From contig JAIUOE010000016.1 of NCBI GenBank assembly GCA_020161395.1, forward strand, positions 1 through 46,715: 46,715 nucleotides of DNA, written 5' to 3'. The first letter of the stretch is position 1; each line of letters begins with the position of its first letter. The position numbers and the translations under genes are program-made. Source of the stretch: Bacteroidota bacterium. Its GTDB lineage: Bacteria; Bacteroidota; Ignavibacteria; Ignavibacteriales; Ignavibacteriaceae. Below, piece after piece: positions 31,277-46,501 of this stretch. Under the pieces are notes generated by a model. The model ran no database searches. It saw only the letters and a list, made by a program, of their open reading frames with translations, and had not been told where the DNA came from.

Positions 31277-31301
31277 GCGGAGAGCCAGGGATTCGAACCC
31301 C
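31277..31301 (-). repeat. attL: 25-bp copy of tRNA-Ser 3' end
   Basis: Identical over 25 bases to 46414-46438 inside the intact tRNA-Ser gene, and in direct orientation. It is a 3' tRNA fragment with no 5' half nearby, the usual mark of site-specific integration by a tyrosine recombinase. Confidence 0.92.
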
Positions 31302-31445: not shown

Positions 31446-32129
31446 TCACGATTCCGTCCTCCGATCGGCTAGAAAAAAATCCAGATCGCTCTTCTTGTAA
31501 AAAATCTTTCCATCTTGCTTGATGTAAGGAATGGCCCCTATCGAATTGTAATTGTAAAGCGTTTTTTGTGTCACCTTTAAATAAGAGATGGCCTGCTTAA
31601 AATCCATCATCATACTGCTCGATCGGTCGCCTGCAATAATTTTTGGAAAATCCTCTTGGGCCTTCAATACATAGTATTGTCGCAAACCATCATCATCGGG
31701 GTTCAACAGTATCTCAGATATGACACCTTTTGTATCGGGCGAGAGAACACAGTAGACAGTGATCACATTTTCCCTTGAAAGGTTGTGAAACTCATAGACC
31801 AATCGGTTAGTCCGGTTTGTTGAAAGTTTCACTTCAACATCGTAAGGTGAGGTTAATAGCCCGCTCAGATAATGGCTTTCTCGCATTATCAAAAACAATA
31901 CACCTCGATTACCTACATCATACTGAATTGTGGCTTTGTTTTCACTGTCAAAAAGTGGTTTATCAAAGATGCGTATCCTACCAGGATGAAAATGTTCTGA
32001 CCTCTTCAATCCCAAATCTTGTGCGTAGTCCGGGGTGATCGTCTCCTCTAAAAGGATTTCTTTAATCCCGTAGCGATTTATTCCATCCTCATAGGTGATA
32101 ATCTTCTGTAGATTAATGAGTCTCTTCAC
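31446..32129 (-). CDS. Protein with excisionase-like C-terminal helix-turn-helix
   Basis: The last ~55 of 227 residues (MDFKQAISYLKVTQKTLYNYNSIGAIPYIKQDGKIFYKKSDLDFFL) form a HTH_17/MerR-like DNA-binding domain as found in excisionases. The N-terminal ~165 residues are beta-rich and not recognised. The gene lies just inside the left att site and its start is 21 bases from the first iteron. It could therefore be an excision factor, the regulator of the origin region, or a replication initiator. It reads away from the replication genes. Confidence 0.7.
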   Translation of the reverse strand: MKRLINLQKIITYEDGINRYGIKEILLEETITPDYAQDLGLKRSEHFHPGRIRIFDKPLFDSENKATIQYDVGNRGVLFLIMRESHYLSGLLTSPYDVEVKLSTNRTNRLVYEFHNLSRENVITVYCVLSPDTKGVISEILLNPDDDGLRQYYVLKAQEDFPKIIAGDRSSSMMMDFKQAISYLKVTQKTLYNYNSIGAIPYIKQDGKIFYKKSDLDFFLADRRTES

Positions 32130-32793: not shown

Positions 32794-33037
32794 AGATAAA
32801 TTTAAGCTAGCATGGCTCACATTTAATGGTTTTAAGTGGAGTCGAATACAAACAAGTGAAACCGGAACATTTGAGTATATCTTTGATGGTACGAAAGATG
32901 AAAAGGAATGCTTAAGACAGTATGGTTCAAATGATGCCATGTCTGTCAAAGAGTTGAAGGAAGAACTTCAGCTCAATCAATATAGATCACAGGAGTCAAT
33001 CACCAATGAAAGGAAAAACAATATCAATATCAATTAA
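32783..33037 (+). CDS. Small protein between regulator and primase, unknown function
   Basis: This 84-residue frame starts inside the end of the HTH gene (GAGGA ribosome-binding site) and overlaps the primase start by 32 bases, so all three are coupled. It has aromatic-rich strand-like N-terminal sequence (WLTFNGFKWSRIQTSETGTFEYIF) and a basic tail. No family is recognised. The tight coupling suggests a real replication-module protein. Confidence 0.6.
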   Translation: MLVRDKFKLAWLTFNGFKWSRIQTSETGTFEYIFDGTKDEKECLRQYGSNDAMSVKELKEELQLNQYRSQESITNERKNNININ

Positions 33038-35105
33038 TAAGAATTTAACCGAAAAAATTAGAAAACAAAAGGGTAAGGAATACATAAACTCTATCAGCCG
33101 TGACGGCTGGGAACCCCTAACTGTAGACCCATTCAATCTTACCGGAGATTTTTTCTCCTCATGTGCGCAGTATTTTGCAGAACTGTTCGACTACTCCAAA
33201 GGTAAAGACCACCTCAACACTGACTTTTCCTCGATTTCAGCTATAGTCCTCGATTACGATGCCAAGGATGGAAGTATTACATCGAAAGAAGCCGATGAGC
33301 TCATCAAAAACATGAACTTCAAAGCTTATCTTGTTGGTGGAAGTTCATATGACCCCCTTGTTAAGGACTCATTCAGAATCATCTTCCCTTTAGAAAAGCA
33401 AATAGGAGGCATGGAGTTATCAGAGATCATAAACTTGATAGCGAAGTCCAAAACTCCATTTGCGAAAGGACTGGACCCGACAGCCGGCACCATGAGATTT
33501 TGGCAACCGGCATCATCCGCACTGTATTCAACGAACGAAGCAACTGAACTTCTGTCAATTGAGAGGATAGAAAAGTACTTTAATATCCCGGTGGTTAGAA
33601 AGCTCGATGAGATTGACTATAGCAAAGCCAAGCGTCAGGAAACAAAACTTCTGGATGGGATAGTTGATATAACACTTGAAGCTAGTTCAGGTGAGTTCAA
33701 ACTTGGTGAGTTATCGTTAAAGGAAGGTCAGAAAAAGCAATGCTTCTGCCCAGACTGCGGAAATAATCCCGGCAGGAGTAATAAAGGAAAGAACAACGCC
33801 TTTATAAGCGTGAATTCTAAAGGAGCTTACTACTTGTATTGCAGTTCTGAAAGCAAAACAATATGGTTTGAACCTAATGTAGAGTTGGCCACGGAGCCGT
33901 ATTATGTTCTTGGGAAAGCCGTTTACGAGGTTTCAGTAGAAGATCACAAAATATGGGTAACAGAGGTTAGAGATAAAATATTCTTCATTCGAGCCAAAGT
34001 TGCGAATAACAAAGATCTTGAAGACAAATTTTTCGCTCACATTGTCAACAACAAGTTTATCAGCACTAGCTTTAAAGTGGAATACCTTCACTCCGCTGAG
34101 TGGGAGAAAGAAGAGTTCGAGCGTGAGGGAAATACATTGCGATTAAAGATCCCGGCAATACCGGTTCAAACTCAGGACAATCAATTCATTGAGAATGTTT
34201 TAGATGAATGGTTTGGGAATTACAAAGATTTTATAAAGGAGTGGTGGGCTTCATACTGCTACACCAACTTTGTGAAGCTTCCTACATTACTGCTTACCGG
34301 AAAAAGAAGTACAGGGAAAAATACTTTTGTTGAAATGGTTATGAAATCCTTCCCTAACTCAGTAGCTACTCCAATTGATCTCGATGCCAGGTTCAATCCA
34401 TATGTGGAAAGGAAGTTGATTTTCTTAGATGAGCACCTCGAATCGGGAGTAAAACAGTATAAACTGTTGAAACAACTCAGCGGCTCTGATTTCCTTCAGA
34501 TGGAAAAGAAATTCGCTGATCCTGTTCAAGTCAGGAATAACTTGAATGTAATTATCGCCAGTAACGACTCTACGCCAATCTGGCTTAAGAGAAATGAAGT
34601 GCCTGCCGATGAGATCAGGAATCAGTTCTTCGCTTGGGAGTTTCCGACATTACCGTCCAACAAGATGGATGCTCAACTGAAAGAAAAACTAGAGGAGAGG
34701 ATAGGGCACTACATAAGGACCGAGTTACTAGAAGTTTTTAATTCGATTAAAGGAAATATGAAAAACTTCCGTTACGCCATCCCGGTTCCGATTACCGACC
34801 CCCTGAAGGAAATGTATAATCGCTCTGTTTCTCCTAATGAGGAGGCTGCCGATGAATTCATAGAAGAGTGGGAGAATAGCCTTATTGGTTTCAAAAAGGA
34901 GGTCAGACCTTCAGAGATCAAGAAGTGGTGCAAAGATAACAGCGTGAATAGCACCTGGCTGATAAAGGAGCTAAAGGAAAGAAAATGGATGAGCTCAGAA
35001 CTGCAACAGAAGAGAGATCATGGCAAGCAATACAGATCTTATGAAATTCTAGATCCTGTTAACAATAAACTTAATAATCAAGGAGGAAAACCCAATGACG
35101 AATAA
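33006..35105 (+). CDS. Primase-helicase (AEP-like N-terminus, zinc motif, SF3 helicase)
   Basis: The 699-residue protein has an archaeo-eukaryotic primase-like N-terminus with D83 and D85 in IVLDYDAKDGS and the segment SFRIIFPL at ~110-117. A Cys cluster (CFCPDCGNNPG and a later Cys, ~246-280) may bind zinc. A superfamily 3 helicase follows (Walker A GKRSTGKNT at ~431, Walker B LIFLDEH at ~470, motif C VIIASND). It would prime and unwind at the adjacent origin. The histidine usual in primase motif II seems to be replaced by Tyr (GGSSYDP), so priming activity is uncertain. Confidence 0.88.
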   Translation: MKGKTISISINKNLTEKIRKQKGKEYINSISRDGWEPLTVDPFNLTGDFFSSCAQYFAELFDYSKGKDHLNTDFSSISAIVLDYDAKDGSITSKEADELIKNMNFKAYLVGGSSYDPLVKDSFRIIFPLEKQIGGMELSEIINLIAKSKTPFAKGLDPTAGTMRFWQPASSALYSTNEATELLSIERIEKYFNIPVVRKLDEIDYSKAKRQETKLLDGIVDITLEASSGEFKLGELSLKEGQKKQCFCPDCGNNPGRSNKGKNNAFISVNSKGAYYLYCSSESKTIWFEPNVELATEPYYVLGKAVYEVSVEDHKIWVTEVRDKIFFIRAKVANNKDLEDKFFAHIVNNKFISTSFKVEYLHSAEWEKEEFEREGNTLRLKIPAIPVQTQDNQFIENVLDEWFGNYKDFIKEWWASYCYTNFVKLPTLLLTGKRSTGKNTFVEMVMKSFPNSVATPIDLDARFNPYVERKLIFLDEHLESGVKQYKLLKQLSGSDFLQMEKKFADPVQVRNNLNVIIASNDSTPIWLKRNEVPADEIRNQFFAWEFPTLPSNKMDAQLKEKLEERIGHYIRTELLEVFNSIKGNMKNFRYAIPVPITDPLKEMYNRSVSPNEEAADEFIEEWENSLIGFKKEVRPSEIKKWCKDNSVNSTWLIKELKERKWMSSELQQKRDHGKQYRSYEILDPVNNKLNNQGGKPNDE

Positions 35106-35466: not shown

Positions 35467-35468
35467 AC

Positions 35469-35902: not shown

Positions 35903-35909
35903 CAGAAAA

Positions 35910-36194
35910 CTAAACCAACCAAGACTTGAAAATTTTGATTAGTCTTTCATCTTTGCTGAATCTTGATTTCATATCGTATTCGTCTTTCATAGATATAAAG
36001 ACAAGATATTCTCTGCCTTCAACATTCTCAAGACAGACTTTAGTCAGAGTATACCCTGGAGGTCTCATCTTTTTGAAATCCGGTATTACTTCATTCGGTA
36101 TTGAAAATATACCGGAAGAAGGTAACTTGTAGTCCCAATCTCTTTCGTTAATAAAGACGAATGGAAGCTTACGCTCTTCTGATTTTTGCTGCAT
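35910..36194 (-). CDS. Hypothetical 94-residue cytoplasmic protein
   Basis: Small alpha/beta protein without signal or membrane segment (MQQKSEERKLPFVFINERDWDYKLPSSG, ending IKIFKSWLV). A strong terminator directly follows the stop, which supports that it is a real gene. No family is recognised. It is an element-borne orphan between non-coding DNA and a lipoprotein gene on the same strand. Confidence 0.6.
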   Translation of the reverse strand: MQQKSEERKLPFVFINERDWDYKLPSSGIFSIPNEVIPDFKKMRPPGYTLTKVCLENVEGREYLVFISMKDEYDMKSRFSKDERLIKIFKSWLV

Positions 36195-36357
36195 ACTTAT
36201 ACTTTAGCTCCTATAATTTATGTTGTGATTCTATGAGTTCTATATAATCTTACTGTTGAGCAAGATGTTAATTAGCCAGCTCAACATAGATTTCTAGTTC
36301 TTCAGCTATCAACTTTGCTCCAACAATTCGTTGTTGTAAACAATCTGGAGAACCGTT

Positions 36358-36867: not shown

Positions 36868-36928
36868 GATTATATTCCTTTATATATTATTGAGACTGTC
36901 TTATTGATCTAAATAATGTAAAAACAAA

Positions 36929-37004
36929 AAAACGGAAACCATCCCTTGGGCACACACCTCAGCACATCATGCCTTGGCTATGACCAAAAGTCGGTTTCCG
37001 TTTT
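36929..37004 (-). ncRNA. Candidate structured RNA or leader with terminator-like stem
   Basis: A perfect 12-bp stem (AAAACGGAAACC at 36929-36940 with GGTTTCCGTTTT at 36993-37004) encloses 52 bases that include a GAC/GTC hairpin and a GGCA/TGCC pairing. On the minus strand a T-rich run follows. It lies between the seven-gene operon and the lipoprotein gene and could end the operon transcript or be a separate small RNA. Confidence 0.4.
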
Positions 37005-37271
37005 AAATCACGTAAAAAAATTACCCGTGAAGATTCTTAAAAGGTTGAAATCAACAATTGTTTCCCAAGGACAATTTGTGATCTGAGGCGTTTAATCGGT
37101 AGAATTTTATTCCCGGAATTTCCTTTTTTTATCGGAAACAATATTATGAATTCTATTTTTCTAAACCAAGAACTTTCTGATAAATATTAAGGGCAGCGTG
37201 GCACTTGGCATGATGCACTAACACATCCGGTCCGCATTTAATCCGACTCCTGTCGGAACCCTCTTAACATT
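37005..37271. other. Spacer downstream of the amidoligase operon
   Basis: No gene. A short hairpin CCGAC / GTCGG around 37243-37256 might act as a weak terminator for the minus-strand operon. GGCATGATG near 37207 also occurs on the opposite strand inside the neighbouring stem region. Confidence 0.4.
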
Positions 37272-38027
37272 TTACAGATTGAACAGTTTACTCACTTGCA
37301 TCTGGTAGCCGGCTCTGAGTCGCTTGTCAACGACATGGGAGACATACCAGGTGAGGTAGTTGTATAGTGCCCACTGATTAACGGCTTCTGGTTGTTCATC
37401 GATGAATTTGGTCACTTTCTTCCCAAGCTCTGACTTGACTTTCTTGCTCAGATCCTCAGTCACCTCAAGATTTTGCAGGATTTGGAACCTGTTCTGAATG
37501 ACCGGGATCTGTTCATAGGTCAACTCAACCTGTTCCTTGAGGTTATCCACCCTGATCCCTACTGTGTGCCTGGCATAGAACTTGGCAAGCACCTTCCCGA
37601 AGATCATTCCGTTGCTACAGATACCTCTGATGGCACCCCAGAATAAACGAACGCCTTCACTTCCATCGTAGCTGTTGTGCAGATAGAGACTCAGAGCAAT
37701 GTCACTCCTGCCATCGTTAAAGGTTAGATCAGGGAATGTTACTTGAAGTCGCATCCTTGAGTCATTCACGAATGAGTGACTTTGGTCGATGTACCACTTG
37801 GAATCGAGATTGTGAAGTTGATCCATGAGTGGGATAATCACTTCTTCATTCCTCACCAGACGGTAGGTATCAGACATTACCGAGATCAGTTCGTTCTTCT
37901 CCTGATGAACGATGCTCTGATAATCAGGTGAAAGGACGGGAAAACCGTCCTCACCTTCATAGTAGACCTTGCGAGACTCAACAGGGAAGAAGAACGGTGC
38001 AAGCTTATACATTTCTGTACTGGTCAT
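37272..38027 (-). CDS. DUF932 protein
   Basis: The 251-residue protein matches the DUF932 (phage/plasmid-like TIGR03299) layout: a YRLVRNEEVI region, then LHNSYDGSEGVRLFWGAIRGICSNGMIFG, the conserved centre of the family, and a C-terminal helical part with NQWALYNYLTWYVSH. DUF932 genes are carried mainly by plasmids and phages and are often near recombination genes, but their biochemical role is unknown. It is the last gene of the seven-gene minus-strand operon. Confidence 0.85.
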   Translation of the reverse strand: MTSTEMYKLAPFFFPVESRKVYYEGEDGFPVLSPDYQSIVHQEKNELISVMSDTYRLVRNEEVIIPLMDQLHNLDSKWYIDQSHSFVNDSRMRLQVTFPDLTFNDGRSDIALSLYLHNSYDGSEGVRLFWGAIRGICSNGMIFGKVLAKFYARHTVGIRVDNLKEQVELTYEQIPVIQNRFQILQNLEVTEDLSKKVKSELGKKVTKFIDEQPEAVNQWALYNYLTWYVSHVVDKRLRAGYQMQVSKLFNL

Positions 38028-38036
38028 GGCTCATCC

Positions 38037-38519
38037 TCACTTCGTTCTAGCAATGAAAAGGCTCACGGCGATAGACTTGGCATCCATCAAGCCTCCCAAC
38101 TCTGTCTGTATCTTAACTGCATCCCTGCACGACTGTAACATGATCTCATAGAGATTGTCACCCTGCTTCGGAGCTTCAGCCGGTGGTGTTGGTGGCGTTG
38201 ATTCTTCCTTCGAACCGTTAGCGGATGTCTCGACTGCCATTGGCTTTACTTCATATTTGGTTATGATCTTTGAGCCTTTCTGTTCAGCGAGCTTTGATAT
38301 CGTTAACTTTGTGCCCTTCTTGTGTTCTCTCAGTACAGCATGCACTTCATCCGGCGCAAAGAAGCTGTATTCAGTTGCTCCGTCGCCATTCTTAACTGCG
38401 TACAGGTAGTATTCGCCATACTGGCTCTGTCCAATGACCGGCGAATCAAACATCAGTTCAATCTGTACCGGCTGATTCAATTGCAGATCCAGCTTCTTCC
38501 TCTGTTCGTTCTGCATCAT
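38037..38519 (-). CDS. OB-fold-like single-strand DNA-binding candidate
   Basis: The first ~85 of 160 residues have alternating strands (VQIELMFDSPVIGQSQYGEYYLYAVK, ATEYSFFAPDEVH) suggesting an OB fold as in phage single-strand DNA-binding proteins. A Pro/Ser/Lys-rich linker and a C-terminal helix follow. It starts inside the end of the Gam-like gene (62-base overlap) behind a perfect ribosome-binding site (AAGGAAGGAG). Function as DNA-binding is inference from fold and neighbours only. Confidence 0.6.
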   Translation of the reverse strand: MMQNEQRKKLDLQLNQPVQIELMFDSPVIGQSQYGEYYLYAVKNGDGATEYSFFAPDEVHAVLREHKKGTKLTISKLAEQKGSKIITKYEVKPMAVETSANGSKEESTPPTPPAEAPKQGDNLYEIMLQSCRDAVKIQTELGGLMDAKSIAVSLFIARTK

Positions 38520-39024
38520 GGTCTCCTTCCTTAAGTTTATATGTGAACTCCGGCTGTCCCTTGGTGACCTTTACACCTTTAGGCGGATTCATGTGGCTAG
38601 CGCAGTATTGTTTGATCTTTGCCATGTCCGGTTTGTAAGTCTCAGGCACCCTTGACAGCATCTCCATCCGTGCGTGTTGCAGGAAAAGCTCAAGATTCTC
38701 GATCTCGATCTTGTCAGGTTTCTTGTGCAACTTGAGGATTCCGTTCGGGAGATCGATTGTCTTCTCGCCTGAAGCTCTTATGAAAGCTTCCAGAAGCCTT
38801 TCGATCCTTTCGACCTTATCCTGTAGCTTTGAGTTCTTCTGTAAAGCCCACTCCTGAATCAACTTGACTTCCTTATCAGCCTGTTCGAAGTTCTTGGCTA
38901 TCTCATTTTGAAGATTCTTCACTTCGATGAGAAGAAGATCGAAGTGGGCCCTTTCCGAGACCACTTCTTTCTCTTCTATCTCACGAAGGAGATTTTCCAT
39001 GAATTGATGTCCTTCATGTATCAT
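38458..39024 (-). CDS. Gam-like host-nuclease inhibitor / DNA-end-binding protein
   Basis: This 188-residue protein starts with a long coiled-coil (residues ~20-90). The Mu-Gam-like core follows, KTIDLPNGILKLHKKPDKIEIEN, in which K-T-I-x-L-P-x-G and the PDKIEI phrase are the family hallmark. A charged tail completes it. Mu Gam binds DNA ends and blocks RecBCD-type nucleases; phage and plasmid homologues protect replicating or excised DNA. In this element it would suit an excised circular or linear replicative form. Part of the seven-gene operon. Confidence 0.78.
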   Translation of the reverse strand: MIHEGHQFMENLLREIEEKEVVSERAHFDLLLIEVKNLQNEIAKNFEQADKEVKLIQEWALQKNSKLQDKVERIERLLEAFIRASGEKTIDLPNGILKLHKKPDKIEIENLELFLQHARMEMLSRVPETYKPDMAKIKQYCASHMNPPKGVKVTKGQPEFTYKLKEGDHDAERTEEEAGSAIESAGTD

Positions 39025-39026
39025 GG

Positions 39027-39200
39027 TTAGTCCTTTCCATCACCAAAATATTGTCTTAGGGTTTCTTCTGCGACCATAACCGCAATAGTCAGTAATACTC
39101 TTTCCCAACCCATTTTATCCTCCTTTTGAATAAAGTGATCGTAATCTGTTAACTTTTCTGGTTTGTTTGGGTCGTAATACCAAAGCTCTGTCGGTAACAT
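39027..39200 (-). CDS. Small ORF (57 residues), unknown function
   Basis: ATG 39200 has a GGAGG ribosome-binding site and gives a 57-residue protein (MLPTELWYYDPNKPEKLTDY start), ending three bases before the Gam-like start. An internal ATG at 39113 has an even better ribosome-binding site (AAAGGAGG) and would make a 28-residue product (MGWERVLLTIAVMVAEETLR). Both starts may be used. Operon position and ribosome-binding sites support translation. No homologue is recognised. Confidence 0.6.
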   Translation of the reverse strand: MLPTELWYYDPNKPEKLTDYDHFIQKEDKMGWERVLLTIAVMVAEETLRQYFGDGKD

Positions 39201-39220
39201 TCGACCTCCGTGTTTATTAG

Positions 39221-40141
39221 CTATACATATAGCTCATCCTCCATCTGTAGCTCCATACCACAGTGCTGACATCTGTTATCGAAGAGTCCCAACTGGTATT
39301 TCGTTTGTTCGAGACAGTAGGGACACTGGATGTAAACCTGATCATTCAGATCCTTTTTTTTATTATAGCCGTAGTATTGCTCAAGCATTTCGTCATCCGT
39401 GTACCAACTTCGTCTCCTGGGAGTATAGGATTTGTAATCTTCAACACCCTCACGATTGATCGTCAAGACATGGTTGTTCTCCATGTTGTAGTAGTGATAA
39501 CCAATCTCACCGAGTGAGAAGCCTCTTCGCTTGCTGTTGTTGATCTGAAGTGCCTCCTGCATGATCTCCCTCTCGCTACAGAAGTAGAAGATATCGTCAT
39601 ACTCGCTGTAGTACAGCTGGAGGGGATTATCCTTCTTCACGAGTGTTAGGGTGTCTGGATTCTTTGCATCAATCACAGCGAAGGCGAAAGATCCTTCAAG
39701 TTTCTCAAAGACATGCTTGAATCTGTCTCCATTCTTCTTCTTTGACAGCACTTCAAGGATGGCAATCGAATCCACTTCAGCATCTCTTCTCCGGTTGGCG
39801 AAGATTTCACCATCGTTCCAGATCATACCGTTATGGACAATGCAGAGCCCTGAAGCATCGAAGAGGGGGTGATTATTCTTGTTGTTCTTTTCAGTCCCTT
39901 GAGTCTTAGCACGGGTGTGTGCAATGAGTATCTTCGGTAACTCAAGGTTCTTCCAAGCTGGTTTGGTTACAAGAACGGACGATCGAACCGGCTCTTTGAA
40001 TACATTAAGTTTACCTCCCTTTACAAATGCGAAACCCGAGGCATCTCTACCCCGGGTCTCAAGTATTGAAAACATTGTGGTTACTTTGTCTTTGTTTGGT
40101 CGTTTGTCGCCAAAGCAATAGTAGCCCATGATACCACACAT
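39221..40141 (-). CDS. Class II glutamine amidotransferase with zinc ribbon
   Basis: The 306-residue product begins MCGIMGYY, so Cys2 is the N-terminal nucleophile after Met removal. Ntn-hydrolase GATase-II motifs follow (LETRGRDASG, IAHTRAKT, HNGMIWN, DSIAILEVL). A C-terminal CxxC-CxxC zinc ribbon (CPYCLEQTKY, RCQHCG) is added. The enzyme would release ammonia from glutamine for a partner synthetase. The only candidate partner here is the amidoligase two genes upstream, as in the phiEco32-type phage clusters described by Iyer and colleagues. No asparagine synthetase or GlmS sugar domain is present. Confidence 0.88.
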   Translation of the reverse strand: MCGIMGYYCFGDKRPNKDKVTTMFSILETRGRDASGFAFVKGGKLNVFKEPVRSSVLVTKPAWKNLELPKILIAHTRAKTQGTEKNNKNNHPLFDASGLCIVHNGMIWNDGEIFANRRRDAEVDSIAILEVLSKKKNGDRFKHVFEKLEGSFAFAVIDAKNPDTLTLVKKDNPLQLYYSEYDDIFYFCSEREIMQEALQINNSKRRGFSLGEIGYHYYNMENNHVLTINREGVEDYKSYTPRRRSWYTDDEMLEQYYGYNKKKDLNDQVYIQCPYCLEQTKYQLGLFDNRCQHCGMELQMEDELYV

Positions 40142-40177
40142 AGAGTATCCTTTCTATTTAGAAATTTATAAGTTTGG

Positions 40178-40789
40178 TTAGGCTTTGATTGGTTTGTGGT
40201 GTTTACAGAGGGATTTTAGAAGGTTGGCTATGATCTCAGGGGATTCACTTCGGAGCTTGAGGGTAAAACCGATCCTTCGGTTACCATCAGTCTCGATAAC
40301 CCTCCAAGGCAATCCGTGCAGAAGTCGATACTCCATTAACCTGTCCTTTAGGTCGATGGAAACCGATACATCATACTCTTCTCTATCAACAAGTCCAAAG
40401 ACATATACCGGTTTGCTGACATGTCCTACAAGCTCACGGATTCTTGAGAGCCCAATATCCTTTGAGTTGATCTTTATCATCTGCTTTCTTTTTTTCTTCG
40501 AGTAAAGCCATGTCCGGCAGAGATTAAGAATCTCTTCTCTATCGTTGGGAAGTATGACAGGATTCTCAGGCATTTCCGGATCACTGCCGAACTTTTCATA
40601 GCATTCATCACAAAGACAAGAGTCATCTGTGTAATGACCATCCTCAGCGTGCAGTAACTCATCGCACTCTGAACAGGTGCTGAATCGTTCGCGATAGCAA
40701 GTGATACAATAAGGCTCTTCAAACGCCCACCAGATCTCATCTTCATCAAGAGGCTCGTTGCATGCTTCACAGTATGAATGGTTTAACAT
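40178..40789 (-). CDS. LIM-like zinc protein of the amidoligase cassette
   Basis: The first ~65 of 203 residues hold four CxxC pairs (CEAC, CITC, CSEC, CDEC) in the spacing of a LIM/treble-clef zinc domain. The remainder is alpha/beta with strand-rich DVSVSIDLKDRLMEYRLL and RIGFTLKLRSESPEI. No catalytic motif is evident. It sits between the amidoligase (15 bases upstream) and amidotransferase genes, so it may be a scaffold or substrate-recruiting subunit of the modification system. Role is inference from context. Confidence 0.72.
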   Translation of the reverse strand: MLNHSYCEACNEPLDEDEIWWAFEEPYCITCYRERFSTCSECDELLHAEDGHYTDDSCLCDECYEKFGSDPEMPENPVILPNDREEILNLCRTWLYSKKKRKQMIKINSKDIGLSRIRELVGHVSKPVYVFGLVDREEYDVSVSIDLKDRLMEYRLLHGLPWRVIETDGNRRIGFTLKLRSESPEIIANLLKSLCKHHKPIKA

Positions 40790-40804
40790 TATCGAACTCC
40801 TTTC

Positions 40805-41506
40805 TTAAGCTGCGAGGCCCCAGTTGGGCAGTATGTTTTGATCCCAATCCAACTTCTTGTTGATCAGTTTGGTTAACTCAGTCAATCCTTCCTGACAGTC
40901 ATCCGGAATTGTGACTAACATCGACTCTAACTTTCGAAGGAATGTCCTTGATGAGAGGTTTTTTTTGAAATCTTTAAGGTTCAATCCGTCTTCAGTAACC
41001 GCGATCACGGTCAGCTTCGCAAGTGTTAGTGTCACGAGTGCAGTAGTGGGCGACAGGCACCAACTTCCCGGTGTCCTGTATTCCATTCCATGAGATTTCT
41101 CACGGTAGGCAAGTCTTTTTCCGTAACCGGTGTTCTCACGGGATTTCCTTTGTGCTCTATCATCGATACAATCTGATAAGGAGTACAGTACTGTATCCAG
41201 TGAATCGACGATGTTGGGTTGTGGGTTAACTGAGAGGTGGATGTGACCTCCGATTGGATAACCGCTCTGGTAATGACCTGAGAACATCTCAAGCTCAGGG
41301 TGTTTTTCATGCCCACAGCCGATGATGATCTTTAGTTTTGCTGTTAAATCGATAGGGGATTCAGAGAATCCGGGTCTTAACTCTGCAACTGAATTGCAGC
41401 CATCGAGACCGAAGGAAGAGTTTCGTTTGAAGAATTTTGATGCCGGTACAAAAGCTCCGTCGAGCCTTAAAATTAATTCCGGATCGCAACCGATAGTGAA
41501 AGACAT
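40805..41506 (-). CDS. Phage-type COOH-NH2 ligase (amidoligase, type 2)
   Basis: The 233-residue protein has the glutamine-synthetase/GCS-like fold pattern of type-2 phage COOH-NH2 ligases: GCDPELILR at the N-terminus (acidic metal site), FGLDGCNSVAELRPG, IGGHIHLS (the His-x-His metal/ATP site) and YGKRLAYREKSHGMEYRTPGSW. These enzymes join a carboxyl to an amine using ATP, probably making peptide-like bonds on proteins or small molecules. It is the first gene of the seven-gene operon, with the LIM-like and GATase genes immediately downstream. The substrate is unknown. Confidence 0.82.
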   Translation of the reverse strand: MSFTIGCDPELILRLDGAFVPASKFFKRNSSFGLDGCNSVAELRPGFSESPIDLTAKLKIIIGCGHEKHPELEMFSGHYQSGYPIGGHIHLSVNPQPNIVDSLDTVLYSLSDCIDDRAQRKSRENTGYGKRLAYREKSHGMEYRTPGSWCLSPTTALVTLTLAKLTVIAVTEDGLNLKDFKKNLSSRTFLRKLESMLVTIPDDCQEGLTELTKLINKKLDWDQNILPNWGLAA

Positions 41507-41802
41507 AGTAACTCCTGTTTGTTAGTATGTCTTTCTTATACCAAATAATTACTTGAACTCTTAGCTATCTTAAGCAACCGTTAACATCTGCTATATTCTG
41601 ATTCACGGTTGGTTCATGTTGATTAGAATTACTTAACTTTTCATAACTCACTCTGTAGATGAGTATACTTTATTGATGTGTAATTGTTCTTGCAGATTAG
41701 CTATAGAATATTTATCTTTCCAACGGCTTTTTACTCTTATTTATCGTTTATACCTACCTAGGATTAACCTAGACCCATAAATGAATAAATAAAGAGGTAA
41801 AG
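41507..41802. other. Divergent intergenic region with operon control
   Basis: About 296 AT-rich bases that must contain the promoter of the minus-strand amidoligase operon and that of the 41803 gene. No promoter could be assigned with confidence. Two near copies of CCTAG occur at about 41757-41772. Confidence 0.4.
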
Positions 41803-42126
41803 ATGGAAACATCGAACACAAAAGCCAACGCATCATCATCTAGCGAATCTAAAACCACCCGTAGAATTCCGCAAAAGAGGATAGAGGCGCGGAAAGACAA
41901 TTTAATTAAGTTAGGAAACCAAATCGCAGAGGTGGAAAAGCAAATTGCAGATGAAAATTCTGAAATTGCCAAACTGAAAGAATCTAATTCTTCAGAATAT
42001 GCGATTAGAGGCAGGCAAGAACAGATTAAAGTTCTTGTCAGTAACAGAGAGAATCTCATTGTTCAATTCGAACGAGAGAGTAACGATCTTACACTTGCGA
42101 TTTCCCGCAATACTAAATTAAATTGA
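41803..42126 (+). CDS. Small coiled-coil protein
   Basis: The 107-residue product starts with a Ser/Thr/Lys-rich disordered segment and is then one long charged coiled coil (DNLIKLGNQIAEVEKQIADE and following heptads) to residue ~95. No domain is recognised. It may oligomerise or bind nucleic acid through its basic N-terminus (RRIPQKRIEARK). It has its own terminator and precedes a DUF4145-like gene on the same strand. Confidence 0.62.
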   Translation: METSNTKANASSSSESKTTRRIPQKRIEARKDNLIKLGNQIAEVEKQIADENSEIAKLKESNSSEYAIRGRQEQIKVLVSNRENLIVQFERESNDLTLAISRNTKLN

Positions 42127-42134
42127 TTTCTAGG

Positions 42135-42167
42135 GTGCTGTGTTTTCACAGCACTCTTTTTATTTTT
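42135..42167 (+). terminator. Terminator of the coiled-coil gene
   Basis: GTGCTGTG (42135-42142) pairs with CACAGCAC (42147-42154) around a TTTT loop, followed by a T-rich run. The next gene starts only 10 bases later, so it may be partial read-through control. Confidence 0.82.
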
Positions 42168-42176
42168 TGGTAAGGT

Positions 42177-43124
42177 ATGGATATAAAATACGAATTAGCA
42201 GAAGCCTATAAAGACCTCATCTGGAAAATCTCACGCCAAGAATTCCACTCCGCACTTGCAAAAGTTCGATTCATCCTTGAAAAAATTTGTGACTATCTCT
42301 ATCTCCACTTCCTGGATAAAGACTTTTATCAAATTCCACTCAGTAAAAAATTAGAGCGAATTCAAAACACACGAGGAATCTCTGTAGATGTTTATTCACA
42401 GATTAAAAGTATTCAATACTTGAGTAATGTCGGCCACCATGATGAATCTGTTGACGCAAGATATTTTCTCCAACCGGCTCTTATAAGTTTATCTTATGTT
42501 GTTAGATGGTTATTTGAAGAAGTTCTCAAGGAGAAAACGCCTAAAAGATACTACTTCTATGAGTATTTCCAGACGGATAATGGCCTGATATTAAAGAATT
42601 TTCTACCGAATGGGTCATACGATTTCGAGGAAAAGGTTATTCTAAATAGCCCCCTCGAGTATGATTATCAGGGTAAGATAGCTTTTCTAAAGCGAAACGA
42701 CTTCAATCTGTTTATTGTAATTCCCACATCTCTTACATCCGAAATGATAATCAGGCCAGAATGTGAATACCTTCGTGATAAGGTCAAGGATATGATTACT
42801 GAAAAATTACAGACAGTAGGCTTAAGTCGAAAGTTCTCAGTGATGGTAATCAGTGATTATCTCTACTTTTCCTACGATTTCATTTCATTTCAAAATGCTA
42901 TCATGATCGGGACTTATGAGAATCAGTTCTTTTGTTCTGTTGTACCCCGTGGGATTGTTAAAGAAGATATTTCGGAGGAGTTCTTCATAATTGAACACAT
43001 TGCCAATACCTATCTTTGTGTGAAGACCGCATATAAACATTATATCGGGAAAGAAATTGACAGGTTGTTAAAAAATCCGATACTAGATGAATATTTAAAA
43101 AGAGTAGTTTCATCTTTGAGGTGA
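42177..43124 (+). CDS. DUF4145-like protein, element cargo
   Basis: The first ~115 of 315 residues match the DUF4145 (HEPN-related) pattern: FHSALAKVRFILEKICDYLY and later SIQYLSNVGHHDESV followed by an ALISLSYVVRWLFEEV helix. The C-terminal two-thirds is alpha/beta with no recognised domain (YYFYEYFQTDNGL to the end). DUF4145 domains are frequent in phage-defence and restriction-linked proteins, so a defence role is possible but not shown. It follows the coiled-coil gene, from which it is separated by a terminator. Confidence 0.62.
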   Translation: MDIKYELAEAYKDLIWKISRQEFHSALAKVRFILEKICDYLYLHFLDKDFYQIPLSKKLERIQNTRGISVDVYSQIKSIQYLSNVGHHDESVDARYFLQPALISLSYVVRWLFEEVLKEKTPKRYYFYEYFQTDNGLILKNFLPNGSYDFEEKVILNSPLEYDYQGKIAFLKRNDFNLFIVIPTSLTSEMIIRPECEYLRDKVKDMITEKLQTVGLSRKFSVMVISDYLYFSYDFISFQNAIMIGTYENQFFCSVVPRGIVKEDISEEFFIIEHIANTYLCVKTAYKHYIGKEIDRLLKNPILDEYLKRVVSSLR

Positions 43125-43454
43125 TCCCCATGAAGTGGTATTAACCATTGAAATCGTATTTCATCTAAGATTGGTAACACAAGACTATCTTCGTTGAATC
43201 CCCTAAGACTGCTGAATTTTCTAGCCTTCATACCTCTCAAATATTTTTCGCAATCATCGCATTTCACAATCTTTTCAACCTTTATGATGAAATTGAATCA
43301 TTGATTGTGATGCTTCGGACCACTTAATTTTTAGTGAGGTTAATGAACTGAACATCGGACTTTAATTCTCAATTGCTCATCTTTTTGGTGAAGTCGGAAA
43401 ATATGAGTAAGTTTTAGGGCATTTTTTTACCCACAATAAATTTAGAGGCAGTAT
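43125..43454. other. Intergenic region before the secreted repeat protein
   Basis: No convincing gene. A minus-strand 75-codon frame (43040-43267, start MKCDDCEKYLRG) overlaps the end of the previous gene and has only a weak ribosome-binding site, so it is not called. Confidence 0.4.
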
Positions 43455-44963
43455 ATGAAAACCTTTTACAGCAGGTTGTTAATTCTAATCGGCATATTAT
43501 CATTTATAACTTTCGGACAGATCCCTGATTCGTACCGTGAATCTTCCAAGCATGAACAAAACCTAAGGCATGAGCGAGACGCTCTACAGAAGCTTGATAA
43601 CCGAGAGAATCCCGATTTGGACTCAAAGTTTGAGAGAACTCTCCGAATCAAAAAATCAGATGTATATTCAGGGGGTGGATTATTTATACTACTTTCTCTT
43701 GTTGGAGATGACGAGCGCTACACTTACACCTACGACGCAAATGGAAATCGATTGAGTGAGTTGAGGGAGAATTGGCAAAACGGTGCATGGGTTAATATTA
43801 GGAGATATACTTACACCTATGACGCAAACGGGAATCAATTGACAGAGTTGTGGGAGGATTGGACAAACGGTGCTTGGGTGAATGATTCAAGAAGAACTTC
43901 CACCTATGACGCAAATGGGAATCGATTGACGCGTATTCGTGAGAATTGGCAAAACGGTACATGGGTGAATGATTTCAGAGGATCCGCCACCTATGACGCA
44001 AATGGGAATATATTGACTTACCTGTGGGAGGATTGGACAAACGGTGCTTGGGTGAATGATCAGAGAGACAGCTATACCTATGACGGTGACGACAATACAT
44101 TGTCCTTTACGAGAGAGGATTGGGAAAACGGTGCATGGGTGAATCAGTGGAGAGAAACTTACACCTACGACTTTAATAATAATTTATTGACTGATTTAAG
44201 GCATAGAATGGAAAACGGCGTATGGGTTAATAGTTATAGATACACCTATACCTATGATACAAATGGGAACCAGTTGACATGGTTGAGTGAGCCTTGGCGG
44301 AACGGTGCATGGGTGGGTGAAGTTAGAGGCACATTTAATTATGATGCAAATGAAAATCGATTGACAGAGTTGTGGGAAAATTGGCAAAATAGTGCTTGGA
44401 TCACTACTCGTAGAGTAACCTACACCTATGACGCAAGTGGAAATCAATTGACTTATTTGACGGAGAAGTTGGAAAACGGTGCATGGGTGAATTGGGTGAG
44501 ATACACTTACTCTTACGATTCTTTCAACAACACAATATCTGCAAGTTGCCATTTATGGTCAAATAATAGTTGGGTGTTAACGCCGAATCAATGTGAATTT
44601 TACTACAACAACAAGCAAGATAATGTGTCCATCTCTTCAACAACGGCAACTGCTACATATCAGTATATCACCGGTGTTGAAGATGGGCAGTCAGAAGTAG
44701 CCTCTTACGAGCTTTCACAAAACTACCCGAATCCGTTCAATCCGGTAACCGTTGTGCGTTTCGCGTTGCCGGTTGCGGGTGATGTGTCAATAGTGGTTTA
44801 CAACTCTCTGGGTCAGGAAGTCGCGACACTTGTTAATGGATATCAGGAAGCCGGAAGGCACACGGTTACCTTTGATGCGTCAAAACTGACATCTGGTGTT
44901 TATTTCTACAGGCTAACTACTGAGCAAGGTTCGATTTCAAAAAAGATGACTTTGTTGAAGTAG
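43455..44963 (+). CDS. Secreted protein with 29-residue YD-like repeats and T9SS sorting domain
   Basis: Signal peptide (LLILIGILSFITFGQ) at the start. From about residue 89 to 378 there are ten 29-residue repeats of the form YTYTYDANGNRLTELWENW, with NGAWVN ending each unit, resembling Rhs/YD repeats. The C-terminus (~425-502) is a type IX secretion sorting domain (SQNYPNPFNPVTVVRFALP, later GVYFYRLTTEQGSISKKMTLLK). It would be exported by T9SS and anchored or released at the surface. It is element cargo, possibly for adhesion or competition. The closely related repeats may vary by recombination. Confidence 0.88.
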   Translation: MKTFYSRLLILIGILSFITFGQIPDSYRESSKHEQNLRHERDALQKLDNRENPDLDSKFERTLRIKKSDVYSGGGLFILLSLVGDDERYTYTYDANGNRLSELRENWQNGAWVNIRRYTYTYDANGNQLTELWEDWTNGAWVNDSRRTSTYDANGNRLTRIRENWQNGTWVNDFRGSATYDANGNILTYLWEDWTNGAWVNDQRDSYTYDGDDNTLSFTREDWENGAWVNQWRETYTYDFNNNLLTDLRHRMENGVWVNSYRYTYTYDTNGNQLTWLSEPWRNGAWVGEVRGTFNYDANENRLTELWENWQNSAWITTRRVTYTYDASGNQLTYLTEKLENGAWVNWVRYTYSYDSFNNTISASCHLWSNNSWVLTPNQCEFYYNNKQDNVSISSTTATATYQYITGVEDGQSEVASYELSQNYPNPFNPVTVVRFALPVAGDVSIVVYNSLGQEVATLVNGYQEAGRHTVTFDASKLTSGVYFYRLTTEQGSISKKMTLLK

Positions 44964-45004
44964 TTAGTGGCTTTAGCTTAACATCACCGAAGATGAAAAC
45001 AAAG

Positions 45005-45057
45005 AAGAGCATGTGGATAGATAAGAAATTTATCGATCCATATGCTCTTTCTTTTTT
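45005..45057 (+). terminator. Long terminator after the repeat protein gene
   Basis: An extended imperfect stem joins 45005-45024 and 45029-45049 (AAGAGCAT outermost with ATGCTCTT), followed by TCTTTTTT. Confidence 0.85.
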
Positions 45058-45213
45058 AACTAGACTTTTAAAGGTTCAAGTTAAGTTGCTGTTTAGACTC
45101 GACGATTTGATGTTAAGGTTTGTTAAGGTCGATTAACTATCACCTAAGCCACTTTATGCGAAAAAGTCATTATTCAAACTGGAATTCATTCATCCTGACG
45201 CTTTAGCATTAGA

Positions 45214-46308
45214 TCAATCAATCTTTAAGTTGTCGAGCTTTTTAACTTCAGAGTGTAAATGTGCCGGCGAAAGATGTGCGTAGATTTTTACCGAATCTTG
45301 ATCACTATGTCCTAGAAGCTCGGCAAGTGCATTAAAGTTTACACCTTGCATCGCCAAGTGGGAAGCAAAGCTATGCCTAAACTTATGAACATTTCCTTTG
45401 AGTCCCACCTTCTTGAGTATTCCTTTAATTATGTGTAACGGAACATTTTTTGAAATCATTTTGTAACTTTTCGGGGTGTAGAACACATAGGTTTCGTTTT
45501 TTCTAACCTGCTTTTGAAGTATTTCGATTGCATGTTCGTTGAGTCGAAGAATTTTTACTTTGCGATTCTTTGTAGTAATATCTTCATTTGATGTTATCTC
45601 CATAAAGGGATGTGGCACATCGAGGTGCACATTCGACCATCTCAGGGTTCTGATTTCTGCATTTCTTAATCCAGTGAAAAGAAGAAACCTGAAGAAGGGA
45701 CGCCAGTGGTCATTCAACTTTTCAAAAATGATTTTTAACTCATCTAAGGAATAGAACTTAACACGAGGTTTTTCAATTATCTTGAAAGGTTCTATTCCCG
45801 TAACGGGATTTTCTTTACATGCTTTGATCTTTATTCCATGTACAAAGAGTCCGATAAGATATTTTCTGCAACTGTTTGCTGTCTTTTTTGCCCATGGTTT
45901 TTCAGTGAAATCATTTGATCCCAAAACCTCGTTCAAGAACTTCTGAATATAGTTAGACTTCATAAGTGAGACATCTTTAGCAGCGAGACTGAAGTACTTA
46001 GTTATGTATTTCAAGAAGGGTTGAGCATAATTATTATAGCGTTTAATCGAAGATTCGGCAAAATGATGAAGTTTGGTTTCCGCGTAGTCTGCAATGAGGT
46101 TTTCCAATGATATCGGATTAATCGAATCCAATCCGAACCTTCCCTCGTCAAATTGCCTGATTAGTCTTGCTCTTTCACGTTCGGCTTCCTGCTTGGTCCC
46201 TACTACATAGCGGTAATGCTCACCGGCGTACCGGTAGGAGACCCCATATGAATAACCTTTTTTTGTCTTCCGCCTCGTGAGGTTGATTGAAGGGATTTTC
46301 TTTTTCAT
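45214..46308 (-). CDS. Tyrosine recombinase (phage-type integrase)
   Basis: The 364-residue product has an N-terminal arm-binding domain, a SAM-like core-binding domain (~55-165) and a catalytic domain with R215 (TGLRNAEI), H308 and R311 (HKFRHSF), H334 (LGHSD) and nucleophile Y343 (KIYAHL). It recombines the 25-bp att repeats at the tRNA-Ser 3' end. ATG 46308 is chosen; an ATG at 46323 adds five residues, and neither has a strong ribosome-binding site. Adjacent to the intact tRNA, as is usual. Confidence 0.95.
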   Translation of the reverse strand: MKKKIPSINLTRRKTKKGYSYGVSYRYAGEHYRYVVGTKQEAERERARLIRQFDEGRFGLDSINPISLENLIADYAETKLHHFAESSIKRYNNYAQPFLKYITKYFSLAAKDVSLMKSNYIQKFLNEVLGSNDFTEKPWAKKTANSCRKYLIGLFVHGIKIKACKENPVTGIEPFKIIEKPRVKFYSLDELKIIFEKLNDHWRPFFRFLLFTGLRNAEIRTLRWSNVHLDVPHPFMEITSNEDITTKNRKVKILRLNEHAIEILQKQVRKNETYVFYTPKSYKMISKNVPLHIIKGILKKVGLKGNVHKFRHSFASHLAMQGVNFNALAELLGHSDQDSVKIYAHLSPAHLHSEVKKLDNLKID

Positions 46309-46358
46309 ATGCACATTTCCCATTTTTTGAGGTTAAAATGTACAAAAAATGTGCAAAT

Positions 46359-46401: not shown

Positions 46402-46411
46402 TATTGTCAAT

Positions 46412-46501
46412 TGGCGGAGAGCCAGGGATTCGAACCCCGGATACCCGTGAGGATATAACGGTTTTCAAGACCGCCGCATTCAACCACTCTGCCAGCTCTC
46501 C
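46412..46501 (-). tRNA. tRNA-Ser (anticodon UGA), element integration site
   Basis: The minus-strand product starts GGAGAGCTGGCAGAGTGG, has an anticodon stem-loop CGGTCTTGAAAACCG with anticodon TGA, a long variable arm and a T-arm GGTTCGAATCC, and ends GCTCTCCG. CCA is encoded at 46414-46412. The 7-bp acceptor stem GGAGAGC / GCTCTCC is perfect. Its 3' 25 bases are duplicated at 31277-31301, where CCA is not encoded. Confidence 0.97.
46414..46438 (-). repeat. attR: 25-bp repeat within the intact tRNA-Ser
   Basis: Identical to 31277-31301; divergence begins at one base on each side. It marks the right junction of the element and restores the tRNA 3' end. Confidence 0.92.

What the first reader, a model, noticed from the sequence alone, without database searches (positions are those of the whole stretch)
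40805..41506. Amidoligase-led protein-modification cassette on a non-phage mobile element
The sequence shows a type-2 COOH-NH2 ligase (GCDPELILR, GGHIHLS, YRTPGSW motifs), a LIM-like zinc protein and a class II glutamine amidotransferase in one operon. Iyer, Abhiman and Aravind described related ligase/GATase sets in phiEco32-type phages. Here the set sits on an element with no capsid or terminase gene, so the usual idea of capsid or phage-protein modification does not obviously apply. A host or element protein target, or a small-molecule product, is my inference.
Basis: partly seen in the sequence, partly recalled or inferred. Interest (0 to 1): 0.85.

Follow-up and report, generated by a model that had tools for sequence, protein, structure and literature searches.

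The report
Amide-ligase trio on bacterial mobile islands
A small chromosomal island that is not a recognisable virus carries three neighbouring genes that look like an enzyme set for forming amide bonds, a kind best known from phages, together with an unusual zinc protein; what it modifies is unknown and could be tested.

Summary
Window 40805-41506(-) encodes a PF14395 type-2 COOH-NH2 ligase (E 1.9e-32) with its core motifs. It is followed by an eight-cysteine protein, only LIM-like (Pfam LIM below cut-off), and a class II glutamine amidotransferase. They lie on a clean 15.1-kb island: 25-bp att repeats, integration in tRNA-Ser, empty site in a same-genus genome. It has an integrase and a primase; no virion, packaging or PF03432 relaxase gene was recognised.

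The trio is real and selected. In 14 of 14 neighbourhoods whose contig runs on, ligase, zinc protein, amidotransferase, Gam and a 160-aa protein (p160) keep order and strand. dN/dS is 0.04-0.11 where measurable. In class samples the 10 genomes with a full-length ligase are the 10 with a strong zinc-protein match. The trio is an add-on, gained about once on the Gam tree, to wider Ignavibacteria islands with a Gam-p160 core; defence genes lie beside it in 4 of 8 loci tested. phiEco32 gp86 is a distant relative, but its other ligase and partner genes have no homologue here.

Best reading: a glutamine-fed, ATP-dependent amide-forming enzyme serving island establishment or counter-defence. The chemistry is well supported; target and role are inference. 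New variant of a known kind; interest 0.5.

The parts
31277..31301 (.). att repeat, left copy (25 bp)
   Evidence: Exact 25-bp match to the tRNA-Ser 3' part; present once as a full copy in the empty site of same-genus genome G003
46414..46438 (.). att repeat, right copy, inside the 3' part of tRNA-Ser(TGA) 46412-46501(-)
45214..46323 (-). Tyrosine integrase beside the tRNA
   Evidence: PF00589 E 2.1e-25, phrog_1 E 1e-58
31446..32129 (-). Protein with C-terminal HTH_17 domain (excisionase-type regulator, inferred)
   Evidence: PF12728 E 9.1e-7; phrog_66 excisionase and transcriptional regulator E 5.7e-5
33006..35105 (+). DUF5906 primase-like protein
   Evidence: PF19263 E 2.6e-14; phrog_1156 DNA primase E 3.9e-16
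40805..41506 (-). Type-2 COOH-NH2 ligase (amidoligase), first gene of the operon
   Evidence: PF14395 E 1.9e-32; second-look structural alignment of a modest model: YbdK Z 10.6, Dop 10.1, PafA 7.5, glutamine synthetases about 7
40178..40789 (-). LIM-like protein: two CxxC-x17-CxxC fingers plus a conserved C-terminal domain of unknown function
   Evidence: 15-row alignment A4; model pLDDT 83.8; LIM structures fill the top Foldseek rows, best E 1.2e-3
39221..40141 (-). Class II (Ntn) glutamine amidotransferase with a C-terminal four-cysteine motif
   Evidence: PF13522 E 3e-16; 14-row alignment A5; GlmS match E 1.4e-5
38458..39024 (-). Mu Gam-like DNA-end-protection protein
   Evidence: PF07352 E 1.1e-8; phrog_2205 E 2.3e-12
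38037..38519 (-). p160, conserved partner of Gam, no known family
   Evidence: Best Pfam and PHROG rows E 0.027 and 0.29; found in 50 of 382 genomes of the class sample
37272..38027 (-). DUF932 protein, present in part of the family
   Evidence: PF06067 E 8e-14; 7 of 17 trio neighbourhoods

Best explanation
The window holds a 15.1-kb site-specific integrative island (31277-46438) in tRNA-Ser. It has its own primase, no recognised virion or packaging gene, and belongs to a family of islands, some with defence cargo, in Ignavibacteria. Its core operon was extended about once, in one clade, by three genes that work together as a glutamine-fed amide ligase. The amidotransferase releases ammonia from glutamine. 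The GS/GCS-type ligase activates a carboxylate with ATP and joins it to that ammonia (R-COOH + Gln + ATP -> R-CONH2 + Glu + ADP + Pi). The zinc protein recruits or positions the substrate. The trio is fixed to the Gam-p160 operon rather than to the changing cargo, and the gene just before Gam in sister islands is in one case an ArdC-type anti-restriction gene and in another a regulator. So the most likely job is establishment or counter-defence: changing a host (or resident-element) protein soon after the island enters or excises. Shown: the island, its borders, the families, conserved motifs, fixed order, selection, ligase/zinc-protein co-occurrence. Inferred: the reaction, complex formation, protein target, counter-defence role.
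For: Borders. Families. Motifs. GS/GCS-type fold: (weak support). Fixed order in 14 of 14 neighbourhoods that run on past the zinc gene. Full-length ligase and strong zinc-protein match in the same 10 genomes of the class samples: 391 genomes; 382. dN/dS 0.04-0.11 in 10 of 17 trio comparisons, the other 7 saturated. Pairwise distances correlate: ligase/zinc protein 0.93, ligase/amidotransferase 0.81, ligase/Gam 0.79 (12 loci). Trio label needs 2 changes on the Gam tree against 11.0 in shuffles. Upstream genes in sister islands: ArdcN E 1.3e-22, a GerE/sigma-like regulator, two ATP-dependent DNA ligases, of ten scanned. Defence genes beside the trio.
Against: No experiment. Substrate wholly unknown. 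The ligase model is modest (pLDDT 63.1, residues 1-12 and 26-85 under 50), Foldseek found no match at E <= 0.001, and the aligner's note warns that best Z of 7-8 is common without true kinship. The amidotransferase could instead hydrolyse gamma-glutamyl compounds, as EgtC-type relatives do (recalled). Of the ten upstream proteins scanned in sister islands only one was an anti-restriction gene and five had no Pfam match, so the counter-defence argument is thin. On the p160 tree the trio label needs 4 changes, not 2. Gam and trio can be exchanged separately (Gam dS 0.22 between L041 and L042, against 0.97-1.33 for the trio genes).
Confidence: 0.35

Rival explanations
1. Surface change against superinfection: the trio amidates a cell-wall or envelope carboxylate so that competing phages cannot adsorb or inject, as proposed for the phiEco32 set and as MurT-GatD does chemically in peptidoglycan.
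For: Proposed for phiEco32 in papers citing Iyer et al. (PMC11318856, PMC10580990; passages). MurT-GatD amidates peptidoglycan glutamate (PMC3267633 abstract). The islands carry other anti-phage genes.
Against: No wall or lipid-precursor enzyme was recognised in the conserved operon, whose other members are Gam, p160 and, in half of the cases, DUF932. The ATP-grasp, type-1 ligase and GGACT partners of phiEco32 have no homologue in the 17 neighbourhoods.
Confidence: 0.15
2. The trio is itself a defence system: it acts on incoming phage proteins or makes a toxic or signalling product on infection.
For: It lies next to variable cargo; recognised defence genes sit there in 4 of 8 loci tested with PADLOC.
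Against: Order and linkage to Gam-p160 are fixed while neighbours change; nearly single origin on the Gam tree; no PADLOC match for the three proteins at E <= 0.1 (library of 2023).
Confidence: 0.15
3. Small-molecule pathway: the ligase makes a gamma-glutamyl or peptide-like amide and the Ntn enzyme hydrolyses or trims it, as in EgtA/EgtC-type pairs (recalled).
For: Glutamine-binding motifs of class II amidotransferases do not tell ammonia transfer from gamma-glutamyl hydrolysis (recalled). The best fold rows of the ligase include YbdK, a GCS-like enzyme (recalled).
Against: No further biosynthetic gene was recognised in the conserved operon. The zinc protein accompanies the ligase in 10 of 10 genomes, which fits an adaptor better than a metabolic enzyme.
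Confidence: 0.2
4. Satellite hijack: the islands are phage satellites and the trio modifies helper-phage proteins so that island DNA is packaged.
For: Integrase, HTH regulator, primase, att repeats, no recognised structural genes and 15.1 kb fit published satellite features (7-20 kb; PMC13376191 abstract).
Against: Two delimited relatives are 40.9 and 34.8 kb, above that range. No packaging gene was recognised among 42 scanned proteins. No helper is known.
Confidence: 0.1

Closest known systems
phiEco32-type phage amidoligase/GATase gene set (Iyer, Abhiman, Burroughs and Aravind 2009; recalled and seen as cited, not read)
   Same: gp86 is PF14395 (E 2.2e-8) and gp83 a class II amidotransferase (PF13522 E 1.1e-14). 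gp86 matches the island ligases (phmmer E 1.4e-5 to 9.7e-3) and shares the core residues.
   Different: The phage set also has a type-1 ligase (gp84, PF12224), a GGACT/YtfP protein (gp77) and an annotated ATP-grasp protein (gp80; only weak Pfam rows); none of these three has a homologue in 17 island neighbourhoods. No convincing homologue of the zinc protein, Gam, p160 or DUF932 in phiEco32 (best E 0.065 or worse). The islands integrate in tRNA genes.
Ligase/amidotransferase pairs in uncultivated viruses (IMG/VR)
   Same: 8 of 42 viral loci found with the amidotransferase also hold a ligase-like ORF; in the closest, L096, the two genes are adjacent.
   Different: 0 of 42 have the zinc protein, Gam, p160 or DUF932 at E <= 1 (only the fetched stretches were searched). 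Identity of the amidotransferases is 23-33%.
MurT-GatD
   Same: Works like: a ligase with ATP plus a glutamine amidotransferase that amidates a carboxylate (PMC3267633, abstract).
   Different: Mur-ligase-like and CobB/CobQ-like partners there (same abstract); not a family relative.
PafA/Dop of pupylation
   Same: Same type of carboxylate-amine ligase fold: Dop Z 10.1, PafA Z 7.5 to the modest model. Shows that this fold can act on proteins.
   Different: No Pup-like gene recognised in the operon; the ligase has only 233 aa; 9-12% identity in these structural alignments.
Phage satellites (PICI, P4-like) and defence-carrying islands
   Same: Integrase, regulator, primase, att repeats; variable defence cargo as in P4-like satellites (PMC9122126, abstract).
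   Different: Gam-p160 core with or without DUF932 and trio; two delimited relatives over 30 kb; no helper known.

Membership tests
PF14395 COOH-NH2 ligase type 2 | Score above the curated Pfam cut-off | tested here: met
   112.9 bits against 25
PF14395 COOH-NH2 ligase type 2 | Core motifs GxDPE, GGHxH, YG, R, EYR kept | tested here: met
   14 invariant positions in 11 of 11 chosen rows; their catalytic roles are recalled from GS/GCS enzymes
PF14395 COOH-NH2 ligase type 2 | ATP-dependent amide-bond formation | not testable with these tools
   Needs biochemistry
Class II glutamine amidotransferase | N-terminal nucleophile Cys after Met, glutamine-binding R, N-G and D | tested here: met
   C2, R77, N104, G105, D124 invariant in 14 of 14; aligned to GlmS; roles recalled
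LIM domain (PF00412) | Score above the Pfam cut-off | tested here: not met
   21.4 against 22.9 bits
LIM domain (PF00412) | Two zinc fingers joined by a 2-residue linker | tested here: not met
   Invariant C7 C10 C28 C31 C39 C42 C60 C63, 7 residues between fingers; the 2-residue rule is recalled
phiEco32-type peptide-ligation gene set | Type-2 ligase and class II amidotransferase | tested here: met
phiEco32-type peptide-ligation gene set | Type-1 ligase, ATP-grasp and GGACT/YtfP partners | tested here: not met
   No gp84, gp80 or gp77 homologue in 17 neighbourhoods (phmmer, E <= 0.01)
Tailed-phage prophage | Terminase, portal, capsid or tail genes inside the att borders | tested here: not met
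   PHROG scan of 42 non-module proteins of three delimited islands: 22 families, none described as structural or packaging (14 genes of the two larger islands were not in it). TerL_ATPase PF03354: 0 of 3 genomes; 1 of 9 others, on a contig without the trio. phrog_2 (recalled as large terminase; 11 of 14 controls ring): no match inside a trio neighbourhood in 12 genomes
Phage satellite (PICI-like) | Integrase, regulation and replication genes, att repeats, no structural genes, 7-20 kb | tested here: inconclusive
   Window island fits (15.1 kb); delimited relatives are 40.9 and 34.8 kb
Phage satellite (PICI-like) | Mobilised by a helper phage | not testable with these tools
   Needs induction experiments
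Integrative conjugative/mobilisable element | Relaxase | tested here: inconclusive
   PF03432 in 0 of 3 genomes; other relaxase families not tested
Known anti-phage defence system (PADLOC) | Match of the three proteins to a PADLOC model | tested here: not met
   0 families at E <= 0.1 for each of the three (library of 2023)

The most novel reading that the evidence does not exclude
The trio is a new class of mobile-element effector: a glutamine-dependent protein amidation machine, with a zinc adaptor that picks the target, which neutralises acidic residues or C-termini of a host defence or DNA-processing protein and so lets the island establish itself. It would be a protein-amidation counter-defence system.
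Probability: 0.2. Interest if true: 0.8.

Novelty: new variant of a known kind. Interest (0 to 1): 0.5.

Why it matters
Ligase/amidotransferase sets of phages have carried a predicted function since 2009; in the passages that I read they are predictions, and I saw no tested product. The islands offer a reduced version: three genes, one constant extra partner, no recognised virion genes, fixed linkage to a DNA-protection gene. That makes capsid modification of the carrier itself unlikely and makes the open question of what these enzymes modify testable by mass spectrometry in a simple expression host. It also brings out a tRNA-integrating island family in Ignavibacteria with a Gam-p160 core.

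Tried and rejected
Prophage: rejected for the three delimited islands on gene content and, for the window, the empty site; the other trio neighbourhoods were checked only for terminases by genome searches, of which phrog_2 was unspecific (11 of 14 controls; its name was not shown). Chance or artefact: rejected. DNA-base modification through the amidotransferase (as in 7-deazaguanine phages, recalled): considered only, no dedicated search. C-terminal domain of the zinc protein: second-look rows are amidohydrolase- and peptidase-like folds at Z 5-7 over about 100 residues (pyrrolidone carboxyl peptidase, N-acetylmuramoyl-L-alanine amidases, poly-gamma-glutamate hydrolases), within the range the tool calls common; not used. 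Solved-structure search with the ligase profile: best E 0.13. Promoter and terminator scan: no more than shuffles. A small RHH-like ORF (by eye) between amidotransferase and Gam in six relatives (cluster c6) was not seen in the window.

Dropped rows: decayed ligase fragments (G009 C69 and C48, G050 C15, G028, G286, G368, a second copy in G358, and L048, L049) were left out of the gene-order counts, as was the 3.3-kb contig L032, whose zinc-protein row equals that of L033. L174 (tail of a trio locus plus a second Gam-p160) was left out of the trees. L032, and L034 which ends in the amidotransferase, were left out of the distance correlations. Viral Foldseek rows for the zinc protein (5 at E <= 0.001; row 4 is named LIM domain containing protein, row 6 at E 1.3e-3 Amidoligase enzyme, both from uncultured Caudovirales phages) were not followed: LIM-like folds do occur in phage proteins, possibly with such ligases. 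One search shows 25 of 29 Pfam families and does not say which protein matched. My ORF list cut phiEco32 gp83 short, so the absence of an amidotransferase match there means nothing; one search shows the domain.

Full report
What is there. The ORF at 40805-41506(-) is a 233-aa PF14395 COOH-NH2 ligase (E 1.9e-32; PHROG 3815 'COOH.NH2 ligase' E 6.6e-6). Fifteen bases downstream lies a 203-aa eight-cysteine protein (40178-40789), and 36 bases further a 306-aa class II glutamine amidotransferase (39221-40141; PF13522 E 3e-16). Then follow Mu Gam (38458-39024; PF07352 E 1.1e-8), a 160-aa protein without family (p160, 38037-38519) and DUF932 (37272-38027; E 8e-14), all on the minus strand.

The element. 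tRNA-Ser lies at 46412-46501(-). A 25-bp piece of its 3' part (46414-46438) recurs exactly at 31277-31301; a 19-bp partial copy starts at 31174. A tyrosine integrase sits beside the tRNA and an HTH_17 protein at the other end; a DUF5906 primase-like protein lies inside. In the same-genus genome G003 the left flank (85% identical over 1249 bases) runs into the tRNA and right flank (98% over 160 bases), and the full 25-bp core is present once: the empty site. So the island is 15.1 kb.

Relatives. Of 59 genomes (own included) 9 gave a match to the ligase. In a class sample 14 of 391 did; 10 of these have a full-length copy, the other 4 fragments only. In a phylum sample PF14395 was found in 8 of 395 genomes, all within this order and all already known carriers (one a fragment), and in 0 of 14 control genomes. 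The 19 loci with names come from MAGs labelled mostly Ignavibacteria, Ignavibacteriae, Ignavibacteriales or Ignavibacteriota, with one Melioribacteraceae, three Bacteroidetes and one Gracilibacteria contig, the last with a zinc-protein row identical to that of an Ignavibacteria contig, so perhaps misbinned. No relative of the ligase was found in annotated phages by tblastn or in two pattern scans of IMG/VR; one weak plasmid hit lies in a Paenibacillus plasmid near cotE, mutS and mutL. These scans miss distant relatives: phiEco32 gp86, for one, was not found.

Gene order. In 17 neighbourhoods (window included) the ligase is present in 17, the zinc protein in 15, the amidotransferase, Gam and p160 in 14 each, DUF932 in 7. 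The three shortfalls end at their contig's end (G050a, G239a, G239b). So in 14 of 14 that run on, the five genes keep order and strand. In the class samples the zinc protein matches strongly in 10 of 382 genomes (2 more weakly, E 1e-6 and 4.6e-4), and these are the 10 with a full-length ligase. p160 is wider: 50 of 382.

Add-on to a wider core. Twenty stretches around p160 genes outside the known trio loci were read. Gam and p160 are in 20 of 20, DUF932 in 5, an integrase match in 7, ligase or zinc protein in none; L174 carries the tail of a trio locus. On a Gam tree of 33 loci (14 with trio, 19 without) the trio needs 2 changes (shuffled mean 11.0), with the trio-less L171/L172 pair inside the trio clade, so one gain and one loss is the simplest account. 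On the p160 tree 4 changes are needed and few branches are well supported. In L171 the place before Gam is taken by a 186-aa regulator (GerE E 7.5e-6); in L176 by an ArdC-type protein (ArdcN E 1.3e-22, zincin E 2.2e-32); DNA ligases lie upstream in L186 and L189; five of the ten proteins scanned had no Pfam match.

Selection. In the trio 10 of 17 pairwise comparisons gave dN/dS 0.04-0.11; 7 were saturated, and most of the 10 have dS near or above 1, so the values are rough. Pairwise distances over 12 loci correlate: ligase/zinc protein 0.93, ligase/amidotransferase 0.81, ligase/Gam 0.79, ligase/p160 0.60.

Cargo. Ten proteins upstream of the trio from 8 loci were scanned against PADLOC: 7 matched at E <= 1e-5. 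Clear cases are a type III restriction enzyme (2.1e-223, L039), type IIG restriction-modification (2.8e-82, L041), SoFic (3.4e-106, L038) and Hma-like methylase and ATPase (9.9e-42, 7.8e-23, L033), that is 4 of 8 loci; the L040 match is an RtcR/PspF-like AAA regulator; L031, L042 and L043 gave none. Pfam of 42 proteins from three delimited islands shows KwaB, GmrSD, Macro, SNF2 and others, one protein each. In the window the divergent neighbours are a 107-aa protein, a DUF4145 protein and a YD-repeat/secretion-tail protein; none is a recognised defence gene (the last was not scanned with PADLOC).

Not a recognisable phage. Two further islands could be delimited: G358 (tRNA-Met, 46-bp repeat, 40.9 kb) and G029 (tRNA-Ser, 21-bp repeat with an A-rich tail, 34.8 kb, less secure). 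From these two and the window island 42 non-module proteins were scanned: 22 PHROG families (complete list), helicases, methyltransferases, a phosphatase and unnamed ones, none described as structural or packaging. Left out of that scan, besides module genes and short ORFs, were nine genes of G358 and five of G029: integrases, primases, a replication protein and large restriction- or ATPase-like proteins, assigned by reading, by homology or, and one 249-aa protein of G029 not identified. A weak row against: the window's YD-repeat protein hits a PHROG named virion structural protein at E 1.7e-4, no stretch passing. PF03432 relaxase and TerL_ATPase are absent from 3 genomes. Among 9 other carriers TerL_ATPase occurs in one, G239, on contig C3, not on its trio contigs. 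phrog_2, recalled as large terminase, rings in 11 of 12 carriers and 11 of 14 controls; no match lies inside a trio neighbourhood, the one in this window (17122-17466, E 6.7e-4) being outside the island, and the nearest other one over 60 kb away (G050 C4).

Chemistry. Fourteen ligase positions are identical in 11 of 11 chosen sequences. The AlphaFold model is modest (pLDDT 63.1) and Foldseek gives only weak glutamine-synthetase rows (best E 0.048), but the second-look aligner ranks YbdK (Z 10.6, 211 aligned, 3.8 A), Dop (Z 10.1, 207, 3.8 A), PafA (Z 7.5) and glutamine synthetases (about 7) first, with the caution that middling Z is common. The amidotransferase aligns with GlmS through its glutamine-binding motifs and ends in an invariant four-cysteine motif (C273 C276 C291 C294). 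The zinc protein models well (pLDDT 83.8, pTM 0.48); its N-terminal part matches LIM structures (best E 1.2e-3), the rest is unassigned.

Compared with phages. phiEco32 gp86 is PF14395 (2.2e-8), gp83 GATase_6 (1.1e-14), gp84 a type-1 amidoligase (PF12224, 3.7e-8), gp77 GGACT (2.8e-17), gp80 annotated ATP-grasp with weak Pfam rows. gp86 matches the island ligases (1.4e-5 to 9.7e-3); gp77, gp80 and gp84 match nothing in the 17 neighbourhoods. Of 42 IMG/VR loci with a related amidotransferase, 8 also hold a ligase-like ORF and none the zinc protein, Gam, p160 or DUF932. The zinc protein has no tblastn match in phages or plasmids and none in one IMG/VR scan, but viral proteins with a LIM-like fold exist, one of them named Amidoligase enzyme (E 1.3e-3).

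In print. Searches of an open-licence library listed no paper that, by title and start of abstract, describes this cassette on a non-phage island. I saw listings; passages of PMC11318856, PMC3517423, PMC10580990, PMC4431377, PMC6209634, PMC13376191 and PMC7824862; abstracts and outlines of PMC9122126, PMC11541004 and PMC3267633. The 2009 paper was not held. The idea for phiEco32, as cited, is cell-wall or receptor modification against superinfection.

Verdict. A real, selected three-gene enzyme set; known parts, unusual combination and carrier. The reaction is likely; target and purpose are open, and I favour establishment or counter-defence at 0.35.

Noticed in passing
Loci L012, L045, L047-L049, L059-L062, L064, L065 (genomes G009, G028, G050, G286, G358, G368 and others): Several decayed copies of the ligase gene remain elsewhere, mostly pieces of its first 126 codons, some with an internal stop, suggesting frequent loss of these islands or of the operon head.
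   Followed up: partly
38037-38519 and 50 of 382 genomes of the class sample: p160 and its Gam partner mark a wide family of islands, some with an integrase nearby; p160 has no Pfam or PHROG family.
   Followed up: partly
31150-31301, and G003 C4 244800-245265: Repeated copies of a segment of roughly 100 bp holding a partial tRNA/att core stand left of the att site, perhaps traces of earlier insertions.
   Followed up: no
46589-46715: The right end of the contig matches other contigs of the genome (C1 at 100%; C5, C7, C18, C19 at 84-86%): a repeat that probably ended the assembly.
   Followed up: no
43455-44963: A YD-repeat-rich protein with a Por secretion tail (PF18962 E 2.6e-11) lies inside the island: probably a secreted surface protein.
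   Followed up: no
L067:8018-14257 and L067:19954 to L068:5788 (island of G358): Very large cargo proteins (2,080 and 1,945 aa, the latter with an N-terminal HATPase-like part by eye) sit among restriction-type genes upstream of the trio.
   Followed up: no
L171/L172: In the trio-less sister island a LuxR/sigma-like regulator stands just before Gam, and a heavy-metal P-type ATPase (by eye) follows p160.
   Followed up: partly
L177:10864-11076(-): A 71-aa ORF just upstream of Gam matches the amidotransferase profile (E 6.1e-8): a possible relic of a lost trio, or an unrelated zinc ribbon (Pfam Prok-RING_1 below cut-off).
   Followed up: partly
21207-31006: Outside the island: what looks by eye like an RND heavy-metal efflux set (21207-27234) with a response regulator and a histidine kinase (27555-31006; kinase confirmed).
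   Followed up: no
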